Assembly (NCBI GenBank): GCA_900291925.1
Contig: UWYS01000017.1
Location: 440,001-504,000, forward strand
Source of the DNA: Thecaphora thlaspeos
Lineage: Eukaryota; Basidiomycota; Ustilaginomycetes; Urocystidales; Glomosporiaceae
DNA length: 64,000 bases
Direction: 5' to 3'
The notes below the pieces were generated by a model, which was given only the letters and a program-made list of their open reading frames with translations, did not search any database and had not been told where the DNA came from. The first letter of the stretch is position 1, and each line of letters begins with the position of its first letter. Both the position numbers and the translations under genes were made by a program. Below are positions 7,835 through 9,961 of this stretch, piece after piece.

Positions 7835-8199
7835 GTTCGCGGGCCGGTAGTCCGCGGAGGGAAGGCGTGACTTGTAACTGCTGTACAATGCCCTCGTCGT
7901 AATGCCTTGAGTGGACAAGGCCGACGATTGATGCTAGCAGACGACGTCGCGAGGACACCTTCCGGCCATGCCTAGGCCCGAGCTATGTGCTCAAGATTGT
8001 ACTACTGTAAGACGATTGCGTGATGCACTCTTACTCTTTCACGGCGGGCCGGGCTGACGGATCTCGCCCTCGATGCGGAGCCGCTGCAGTCCATACACAC
8101 GCCTGCAGAAGCAGGCGGGTCTTTTGGCGTTAACTTATCGCTATGTATGACGTGCGGCGGCAAGAGGCGCGCACGGGGCAATGCCGGGGTTTCGGCTTA
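7835..8199. other. Rap1 3' flank up to the transposon
   Basis: Presumed Rap1 3' UTR/terminator and short spacer. No gene seen. The TA at 8198-8199 is the left copy of the transposon target duplication. Confidence 0.6.
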
Positions 8200-8313
8200 A
8201 CGCGTCTCCCTGGGAATCCGGCCTCCCTAGGAATCTGGCCAAAAAAATCTACTCGTTGGCCTTCCTCACCACCACCACCACCACCCTTGCTGTCACTGCT
8301 ACACCACCTGCAC
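8200..8313 (+). repeat. Left terminal inverted repeat of the pogo-like element
   Basis: Matches the reverse complement of 9818-9909 over nearly its full length, with scattered substitutions. Relative to the right repeat it carries about 15 extra bp around 8219-8235, where the GGAATC(C/T)GGCC motif occurs twice, plus one or two additional ACC units. Confidence 0.85.
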
Positions 8314-8319
8314 TAAATC

Positions 8320-9441
8320 TTGCTCTCTGGAACAGCACAGCAGGCCCTCTCACCAGCTGCCAAGGCTGCTCTTGCCACCCACATTGAGCACAGTGCCAAT
8401 CAAGGCTTCCCCCTCACCCCAGCCATGGTCCAGGATTATGCTGGAACACTGCAATTGCCCATAGAGGCTGGCAGCTGCTGTCAGGTGAGGGAACCAGGCA
8501 AGAACTGGGTGCAGCACTACCTTGAGCACCACCCACAGCTCCAGAGCAAGTACAACCAAGCTCTAGAGAATCAGTGCATGGATGGTGCCTTGTTTCACAA
8601 CCTCAGCTGCTTCTATGCCAACTTTTCCTGCACCATCAGCCAGTACAACATTGTGCAAGACCAGATCTACAACATGGACAAAACTGGCATCATCATGGGG
8701 TTCAGCAGATATCAGAAGGTCATTGTCCCTGTTGAGAAGAAGAATGCCTTCCATGTCCATCCAGACAACTGCAAGTCCACCACTGTTGTCAAGTGCATTG
8801 GCTCTAGCAGCCTCTTTCTTGACCTGCTTGTGATTTCTGGAAAGACACATGGCACCAGCTTGGAGATCACAGGGGGGATGGAGGGACTGGGCCCCAACTG
8901 GCACTTTGCTGTCTTGCCAAAGGGCTGGACAAACAATGACTTGGCACTTGAGTGGCTTCAGCAGGTCTTTGAGCCACAAACCAAGCCAACTGGGGCTCAA
9001 GAGGGTGAGTGGTGGCTGCTGCTCCTTGATGGGCATGCCTTGCATGTCTCTGTTGACTTCTGCAACCAGTGCTGGAAGCACCACATTGTGCCAGTCTGCT
9101 TTCTGGCTCATGCCACCCATGTTATCCAGTCTCTTGATACCAGCATCTTTGGCCCCATCAAGGACAGCTATGGCTGCCAGGTTGCCACTCTTGGTGGCAC
9201 AAAGAAGGTTGACTGCATCCATTTTGCTTGGTTCTATACTGAGACCCACAGCAAGATCAAGGATGCTGCAGTATGCAAGGCTTTTTCAGATGTGGGTCTG
9301 ACAGTGCCACCCTCCCCTGAGAAGGTCCTCTTGATGCTCCCTGGCTACAAGCCACCTTGCCAAGAGATGCCACTGCCTGCCCAGGAGCCCTTCAAGGCAG
9401 GCAACCATTGCTACATCAGCAAGGACACCATGATCAGCTGA
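8320..9441 (+). pseudogene. pogo-like DDE transposase, N-terminally incomplete, with premature stop
   Basis: The frame has an in-frame TAA at 8314 and no ATG until about residue 36, so the N-terminal DNA-binding part is missing or decayed. The first ~60 residues resemble a CENP-B/Tc5-type helix-turn-helix (ALSPAAKAALATHIE, then GKNWVQHYLEHHP). The catalytic DD35D core is intact: D in IYNMDKTG, D in LLLLDGHALHV, and D in VIQSLDTSIFGPIK with 35 residues between the last two. The frame stops at TGA 9439-9441. It reads on in the same frame for another ~60 Lys/Ala-rich residues typical of pogo transposase tails, so the TGA looks premature, and CGA-to-TGA decay would explain it. Only two arginines (both AGR codons) occur in about 373 residues, with many Cys, His, Gln and Trp, the products expected when CGN codons lose CpG. 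Probably non-autonomous now. Confidence 0.8.
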
Positions 9442-9812
9442 GCAACAGGAGAGTGCCTGTGGGAAGAGAGGATTACAATGGACATTGCAGAGCAGCAGAG
9501 GAAGGAGGAACAAGAGAAAGCAGCCACCAAGAAGGCCAGCAAGGCAGATGCTGCAACACCAACAAAGAATATGGCAAGGCAAAGGGCAAAGCCAAAGCGG
9601 CTGATGTTGCACAACCACCCCCTCTAGCACCTGCTGAGCCTGCAGAGCCACTGCCAGCACCACCCCAGCTTGCTGTTGATCCTGCTTCTGCTGGACCAAG
9701 CTCTCTTGCCTTGTATGACCCCCTGGCTCCTCTTCCCCAACCCATTTGGCAGCAGTTCTGGGCCAGGCAAGCAAAGCTGAGCATGTACTATTTGGAGCAA
9801 GTGTTGAACTGA
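9442..9812 (+). pseudogene. Transposase C-terminal remnant past the stop
   Basis: After the TGA at 9439-9441 the same frame continues as a Lys/Ala/Gln/Glu-rich stretch containing ITMDIAEQQRKEEQEKAATK up to a stop near 9628. In another frame, sequence up to 9812 reads as a Pro/Ala-rich tail ending MYYLEQVLN. This suggests a further frameshift. The segment is as poor in CpG as the rest of the element and lacks any separate gene signal. Confidence 0.55.
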
Positions 9813-9817
9813 TTGCA

Positions 9818-9909
9818 GTGCTTGTCTGGTGTAGCAGTGATGGCAAGGGTGGTGGTGGTGAGGAAGGCTGACGAGTAGATTTTTTGGCCAGATTCCCAGG
9901 GAAACGCGA
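9818..9909 (-). repeat. Right terminal inverted repeat of the pogo-like element
   Basis: The reverse complement matches the left repeat starting at 8200 (CGCGT-TCCCTGGGAATC, CTGGCCAAAAAA, ATCTACTCGT). The outer edge is followed by TA at 9910-9911. It lacks the 15-bp partial duplication found in the left copy. Confidence 0.85.
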
Positions 9910-9961
9910 TATAGGAAAAGAGAACGAGTCAGTTCACCTGACACCCAGCAGCCTTCCTGAG

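What the first reader, a model, noticed from the sequence alone, without database searches (positions are those of the whole stretch)
8200..9909. A transposon almost free of CpG, with its transposase frame largely open and nearly arginine-free
Between 8256 and 9871 I find one CpG (9598-9599). At this base composition roughly a hundred would be expected by chance, and the flanking DNA is CpG-rich. The transposase has two arginines in about 373 residues, both AGR codons, and many Cys, His, Gln and Trp, the residues produced when CGN codons lose their CpG. The DD35D core is still intact, and the one obvious stop (TGA 9439) fits CGA-to-TGA. Either both strands decayed by methylation-driven or RIP-like mutation, or the element evolved CpG avoidance while still under selection. 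The second would be a way of escaping CpG-directed silencing.
Basis: partly seen in the sequence, partly recalled or inferred. Interest (0 to 1): 0.75.

Follow-up and report, generated by a model that had tools for sequence, protein, structure and literature searches.

The report
Fungal transposon stripped of CpG sites
This is a broken copy of a cut-and-paste transposon in a smut-related fungus whose CG letter pairs have almost all mutated away, a known fate of repeats in such fungi and not a trick evolved by the element.

Summary
In detail: 1 CpG in 8256-9871 where composition predicts 115.6. The thing is a deleted, non-autonomous DDE_1 (pogo/Fot1-type) transposon copy, 8200-9909, in a 20.6 Mb smut-like genome. 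Its relatives show the cause. Among 12 long copies, 102 dinucleotide columns hold both TG and CA (controls 6-15): the copies descend from a CpG-bearing element and lost CpG largely separately, on either strand. Relative L020 keeps 142 CpG; three sisters have TG or CA at most of them. Where just one outcome is silent, it was taken 211 of 460 times: no sign of protein selection. Of CpG changes only CGA-to-TGA makes a stop, so frames stay open anyway. Unrelated repeats are CpG-poor too (11 of 11 integrase and 8 of 22 RT loci), and DNMT1-type and DNMT5 genes are present. CpG-poor repeats are in print for smuts. Decay is supported, avoidance is not; slow deamination or RIP stays open. Twist: the window copy and L002 share 66 of 66 CpG outcomes but not flanks, so a stripped copy seems to have moved.

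The parts
8198..8199 (.). TA next to the left end (target-site dinucleotide); partner TA at 9910-9911
   Evidence: sequence
8200..8306 (.). left terminal inverted repeat; begins ACGCGT; a 17-bp unit stands twice in tandem (8207-8223, 8224-8240); keeps 4 CpG
   Evidence: 8224-8306 matches 9827-9902 inverted, 85.5% over 83 columns
8320..9441 (+). transposase frame, 373 aa, 2 Arg, no CpG, ends at TGA 9439; the start of the protein is missing by a deletion near 8335-8340
   Evidence: similarity to L020's frame starts at 8338, its codon 58
8362..8544 (+). weak HTH_Tnp_Tc5 match (residues 15-75)
   Evidence: 21.8 bits, just below the 22.2 cut-off
8776..9186 (+). DDE_1 nuclease domain (residues 153-289)
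   Evidence: E=1.2e-17
9357..9812 (+). open frame in another phase, probably the C-terminal remnant of the transposase (inferred, no domain match); spans the only internal CpG (9598-9599)
9827..9909 (.). right terminal inverted repeat; keeps 3 CpG

Best explanation
The element is a non-autonomous, internally deleted copy of a pogo/Fot1-type (DDE_1) transposon family. Its progenitor had a moderate CpG content. Copies of the family lost CpG by C-to-T change on either strand, most likely because CpG sites in silenced repeats are methylated by the host's DNMT1-type/DNMT5 enzymes and the methylated C is deaminated. This is a RIP-like outcome; whether it is slow deamination or an active premeiotic process is open (I lean about 60 to 35 to deamination). 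The reading frame stayed largely open because CpG-only mutation makes a stop only from CGA. Shown: CpG-centred loss, on both strands, largely separate in different copies, no sign of protein selection, depletion in other repeats, methyltransferase genes present. Inferred: methylation itself, its targeting and its timing.
For: 102 TG/CA-mixed columns among 12 copies against 6-15 for control dinucleotides. TA, the double hit, is rare: 0-4 per copy at the inferred sites. Core O/E 0.009-0.12 in 12 of 12 long copies. L020 has 142 CpG; at the aligned ones L021, L023 and L028 carry TG or CA at 116, 119 and 114 and CG at 11, 12 and 15. Silent outcome 211 of 460. 11 of 11 rve loci at O/E <=0.32 and 8 of 22 RVT_1 loci at <=0.37; GpC in those 19 is 0.97 or more in 16. 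DNMT1-type MTase (PDB DNMT1, 1e-30) and DNMT5-like frame (7r76, 6.9e-210). DNMT1 + DNMT5 go with CG methylation in Basidiomycota (PMC7862722, passages incl. abstract).
Against: No methylation data exist here. Near-identical repeat pairs are untouched or nearly so (L068/L069, L053/L054, L042/L052, L043/L044), so the process is not prompt or not universal. Terminal-repeat CpGs survive better than core ones (43 of 117 against 87 of 1117), which uniform decay does not predict. Outside the inferred CpG sites, changes seen in one copy only are also biased: 95 C-to-T or G-to-A against 28 in reverse, so the process is not purely CpG. The 11 rve loci are not 11 families: 6 of them (L058-L061, L063, L064) are copies of one, and 5 of 11 are below Pfam's cut-off.
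Confidence: 0.9

Rival explanations
1. RIP proper: a homology-sensing premeiotic process mutates CpG in repeats within one or a few sexual cycles. (A narrower form of the best explanation; the two confidences overlap.)
For: CpG loss is roughly 90-150 times faster than other change (retention 6-19% against about 1.8% non-CpG change per copy; my estimate). Six short derivatives (464-764 bp) keep 64 of 82 CpG cells at 14 columns where long copies keep 38 of 158, as a length threshold would give; about 400 bp for linked and 1000 bp for unlinked copies is quoted for Neurospora in PMC5381629 (passage).
Against: Long repeat pairs at 98-99% identity in their aligned parts are not, or hardly, hit. TG and CA do not run in strand-wise blocks: 1 of 12 copies (L005, P=0.017) in the runs test. 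The C21 enzyme matches DNMT1, and the PF00145 search found only two genes. The short derivatives are slightly younger (2.6% against 3.6% non-CpG divergence).
Confidence: 0.35
2. Evolved CpG avoidance: the element lost CpG under selection to dodge silencing while keeping its protein.
For: Open frame; near-total CpG loss; a stripped copy seems to have moved. Loss of target sites as evasion is suggested in print for Microbotryum (PMC5381629, passage).
Against: Copies differ in which strand was hit. No preference for silent outcomes. 21 of 63 inferred in-frame sites are CGN codons, where neither outcome keeps Arg. The copy is deleted. Unrelated repeats share the depletion.
Confidence: 0.03
3. The element came from a CpG-poor donor genome by horizontal transfer.
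For: None beyond the composition contrast.
Against: TG/CA mixing shows that CpGs were lost after the copies split; a CpG-rich relative lies in the same genome (L020).
Confidence: 0.01

Closest known systems
CpG-type RIP-like mutation of transposons in Basidiomycota (Microbotryum and, weakly, rusts; PMC4352252, PMC5381629, PMC4469406)
   Same: C-to-T change at CpG in repeats, on both strands, with a DNMT1-family enzyme present
   Different: No TpCpG preference in the three copies examined, unlike the Pucciniomycotina; in the 12 long copies loss is nearly complete
CpG-poor repeats of smut fungi (Ustilago bromivora, U. hordei, less so Melanopsichium; PMC5106213, passages)
   Same: Same subphylum as the nearest relatives of the host; repeats lack CpG
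   Different: Here followed copy by copy, with strand, silent-site and terminal-repeat tests
Fot1/pogo-type transposons (Pfam DDE_1; type name recalled)
   Same: DDE_1 domain, terminal inverted repeats, TA at the ends
   Different: This copy is deleted and CpG-stripped

Membership tests
CpG-directed RIP-like decay of repeats | C-to-T at CpG on both strands in repeats | tested here: met
CpG-directed RIP-like decay of repeats | confined to the repeat, flanks spared | tested here: inconclusive
   window copy and 4 more of 12 long copies have both 700-bp flanks at O/E 0.96 or more; 7 of 12 have at least one flank at 0.76 or less, whether by leakage or because they lie in other repeats was not tested
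CpG-directed RIP-like decay of repeats | 5mC at CpG in the targets | not testable with these tools
   no methylation data; DNMT1-type and DNMT5-like genes found
RIP proper (Neurospora-type) | hits long, nearly identical duplicates | tested here: not met
   four pairs at 98-99% in aligned parts with CpG largely intact
RIP proper (Neurospora-type) | RID/Masc1 methyltransferase | tested here: inconclusive
   the C21 enzyme matches DNMT1 chains with a sub-cut-off BAH match; no tree was built
pogo/Fot1-type (DDE_1) transposon | DDE_1 nuclease domain | tested here: met
pogo/Fot1-type (DDE_1) transposon | terminal inverted repeats and TA duplication | tested here: met
   TA seen at both ends of the window copy, not tallied over the others
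pogo/Fot1-type (DDE_1) transposon | complete transposase | tested here: not met
   5' and 186-bp deletions, TGA; relatives L020, L068 and L069 have 608- and 664-codon open frames
CpG-avoiding element under selection | silent outcomes preferred at lost CpG | tested here: not met
   211 of 460; smallest P of 12 copies 0.21; five-copy pool 85 to 110, P=0.085

The most novel reading that the evidence does not exclude
CpG stripping makes a transposon copy invisible to CpG-directed silencing, so stripped, non-autonomous copies that keep only the CpGs of their terminal repeats go on to settle in CpG-rich, gene-bearing DNA. In 12 long copies core CpG retention falls with the CpG content of the flanks (rho -0.69, P=0.013; with one of each related pair left out, n=9, rho -0.90, P=0.0009) while terminal-repeat retention rises with it (rho 0.66, P=0.019; n=9, 0.63, P=0.07) (with the other site definition -0.58, P=0.048 and 0.73, P=0.007). 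L001 and L002 share 66 of 66 core outcomes but not their flanks. The test was post hoc, the copies are related, and methylation of the surroundings after insertion could explain the terminal-repeat part.
Probability: 0.15. Interest if true: 0.5.

Novelty: new member of a known kind. Interest (0 to 1): 0.25.

Why it matters
It shows that an open frame in a CpG-free repeat is no sign of selection: CpG-only mutation largely spares frames. It also gives a series in one small genome (CpG-rich, partly and nearly fully stripped copies, and short derivatives) beside DNMT1-type and DNMT5-like genes, in which RIP and slow deamination could be told apart and the fate of stripped copies followed.

Tried and rejected
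CpG avoidance: not supported, by TG/CA mixing and the silent-outcome test. TpCpG preference: none seen in L021, L023, L028. Strand-wise blocks: 1 of 12 copies (L005, P=0.017). Horizontal origin: against it L020 and the mixing. Segmental duplication of L001/L002: their flanks of about 1.5 kb on each side do not match; gene conversion between the two is not excluded. The PDB search with the window frame gave nothing at E<=0.1. (terminal-repeat pattern scans) gave no result. Horns 2012 is not held; its content is known to me only through other papers. Rows and limits: 25 of 65 first-look candidates were not scored, so copy counts are lower bounds. I used 12 long copies, 5 of the group about 70-73% alike (B) and 6 short ones; L013-L019 are second cuts of elements already counted; further B and short copies had no locus and were not used. 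Inferred CpG sites needed at least 6 copies with letters. DDE_1 matches (46) were not cut out, apart from those already held and L068, L069.

Full report
Observation. Between 8256 and 9871 there is one CpG (9598-9599) where composition predicts 115.6 (Poisson log10 P = -48). Window-wide O/E is 1.05 and the 700-bp flanks of the element have 1.20 and 0.96. TpG/CpA is raised in the two 1-kb tiles that hold it (1.54 and 1.64). The element is 8200-9909, with terminal inverted repeats beginning ACGCGT and (inverted) TCGCGT and TA next to both ends. Seven of its eight CpGs lie in the terminal repeats.

Identity. The frame 8320-9438 matches DDE_1 (E=1.2e-17) and, just under the cut-off, HTH_Tnp_Tc5. 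I call it pogo/Fot1-type; the type name is recalled, the domain comes from the call. The genome has 20.6 Mb in 32 contigs. A neighbouring PI-PLC gene is closest to Pseudozyma flocculosa (57%), then Violaceomyces and Sporisorium, and the best named relative of L020's transposase is from Pseudozyma flocculosa too (39%). The host is therefore in or near the Ustilaginomycotina; the species was not identified.

Copies. One search gave 131 matching pieces, from which I took 12 long copies (L001-L012), 5 copies of a group about 70-73% alike (B) and 6 short derivatives. L001 is the window copy. It and L002 lack 283-286 bp on the 5' side, so that similarity to L020's frame starts only at its codon 58; they also lack 186 bp further on (missing in L003 and L004 too) and 19 bp near the 3' end, and L001 lacks another 23 bp. 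L001 is non-autonomous.

Decay, not avoidance. In the 12-copy alignment 102 dinucleotide columns hold both TG and CA; the other classes give 6-15 (TA is the mirror of the same count). TG and CA at one place in sister copies point to CG before. With columns that still show CG, 117 sites are inferred, and 129 with the short copies added. Inferred progenitor O/E per 200 columns is 0.39-0.83, and 1.85 in the last 66 columns, so the progenitor was moderately CpG-rich, with a low stretch near its 3' end. Pairs of copies agree in TG/CA choice at 0.42-0.82 of shared core sites, except L001/L002 at 66 of 66, so some losses are inherited and many are separate. In group B, L020 has 142 CpG in its 2,177 bp (core O/E 0.72) and a 608-codon open frame, while L021, L023 and L028 have TG or CA at 116, 119 and 114 of its CpG sites and CG at 11, 12 and 15. 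The 5' base of the CpG made no visible difference in those three.

Why the frame is open. Where exactly one of TG and CA is silent, the silent one is found 211 times and the other 249 times over 12 copies; no copy departs from one half (smallest P 0.21), and a pool of five less related copies leans to the non-silent side (85 to 110, P=0.085). Of 63 inferred sites in 8320-9438 only 2 show an outcome that is a stop; 9439 lies just outside that count. Simulated full CpG loss in L020's frame gives 1.5 stops on average (none in 12% of runs) and brings 34 Arg to 6; the same number of random C-to-T/G-to-A hits gives 5.7 stops. At 8998 L020 has CGA, while 8 of the 12 long copies have CAA and 4 TGA; at 9439 five copies have TGA, six CAA and one a gap.

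Not element-specific. All 11 integrase (rve) loci have O/E 0.32 or less in the match (for L067, in the middle 500 bp), though 6 of them are one family and 5 are under Pfam's cut-off; 8 of 22 RVT_1 loci have 0.37 or less, the other 14 have 0.74-1.26. Among those 14, nine loci form a reverse-transcriptase family with long frames that is not depleted; its closest pairs are 95-98% alike by BLAST and 98-99% in the aligned parts, with one-step CpG differences of 12, 20 and 20 against 11, 13 and 13 at GpC, a slight CpG excess at most. A tyrosine-recombinase match follows one copy on C18, which suggests a DIRS-type element. A member of the same family at C1:292776-294095 is depleted (L056). A DDE_1 pair, L068/L069, is 98% identical, has 664-codon frames, shares 163 CpG (6 one-step differences) and has O/E 0.86. 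In this sample young repeats keep their CpG and older ones have mostly lost it.

Flanks. The window copy and four others have both 700-bp flanks at O/E 0.96 or more; 7 of 12 have at least one flank at 0.76 or less, down to 0. Whether those lie in other decayed repeats or were hit by spreading was not tested.

Machinery. PF00145 rings in two genes. The C4 frame matches chain 7r76 at 6.9e-210, named Rad8 in the PDB copy; that this is Cryptococcus DNMT5 is recalled, and PMC7862722 treats Rad8/DNMT5 together (passages). The C21 gene matches DNMT1 chains at 1e-30 with a sub-cut-off BAH match. DNMT1 + DNMT5 go with CG methylation in Basidiomycota (abstract of PMC7862722 as a passage).

Slow or fast. 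CpG retention is 59 of 960 core cells at mixed sites, or 154 of 808 when conditioned on CG in another copy; non-CpG divergence is 3.6% per pair. That makes CpG loss roughly 90-150 times faster, my estimate. Changes outside CpG are biased as well (95 C-to-T or G-to-A against 28 in reverse among single-copy changes). The speed and the better retention in short derivatives (64 of 82 against 38 of 158) lean to a RIP-like process; hardly touched 98-99% pairs and the lack of strand blocks in 11 of 12 copies lean to methylation and deamination. I put deamination over RIP at about 60 to 35.

The twist. Terminal-repeat CpGs are kept at 43 of 117 cells against 87 of 1117 in the core (46 of 115 against 59 of 960 with the other site definition). 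L001 and L002 share all 66 comparable core outcomes but not their flanks, so a stripped copy seems to have moved, presumably by transposase made elsewhere; gene conversion between the two is the alternative. Core retention falls and terminal retention rises with flank CpG content. Selection for working ends at each move, or an edge effect of unmethylated flanks, would both give this.

Literature. CpG-only C-to-T signatures in basidiomycete transposons are described in PMC4352252 (abstract and two sections read), CpG hypermutation in PMC4014442 (passages), CpG lack in repeats of Ustilago bromivora, U. hordei and, less, Melanopsichium in PMC5106213 (passages), CpG bias in Microbotryum in PMC4469406 (passages), and evasion by shedding target sites is suggested in PMC5381629 (passages). 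The phenomenon is therefore known and this is one more case. Whether CpG-stripped copies that moved afterwards are in print I cannot say: one narrow search gave no paper and another listed five that I did not open.

Noticed in passing
L042-L044, L046, L048, L051-L054 (C4, C3, C15, C23, C7, C18, C10): A reverse-transcriptase family with long open frames and ordinary CpG (O/E 0.87-1.26 in the match) in a genome where the integrase loci examined are CpG-poor; a tyrosine-recombinase match follows the C18 copy at C18:401376-401639, suggesting a DIRS-type element.
   Followed up: partly
L068 (C5:102600-105600), L069 (C2:1082200-1085200): Two 98% identical DDE_1 elements with 664-codon open frames and 163 shared CpG: hardly decayed carriers of the same domain as the window's element.
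   Followed up: partly
window 8207-8240: A 17-bp unit at the left end stands twice in tandem; the right end has one unit. Other copies show one or two units at either end.
   Followed up: no
L026 (C16:50762-54791): 4,030 bp with only 10 CpG (250 expected), flanks of the element included: a nearly CpG-free island, perhaps nested repeats.
   Followed up: no
C18:134532-135310 and C18:138187-138965: Two equally scoring B-like pieces in inverted orientation about 3 kb apart, possibly an inverted duplication.
   Followed up: no
C21:100715-102128: The DNMT1-type gene seems short: a WD40 (WDR4-like) frame lies just upstream on the same strand, and no RFD domain was found in the five frames scanned.
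   Followed up: partly
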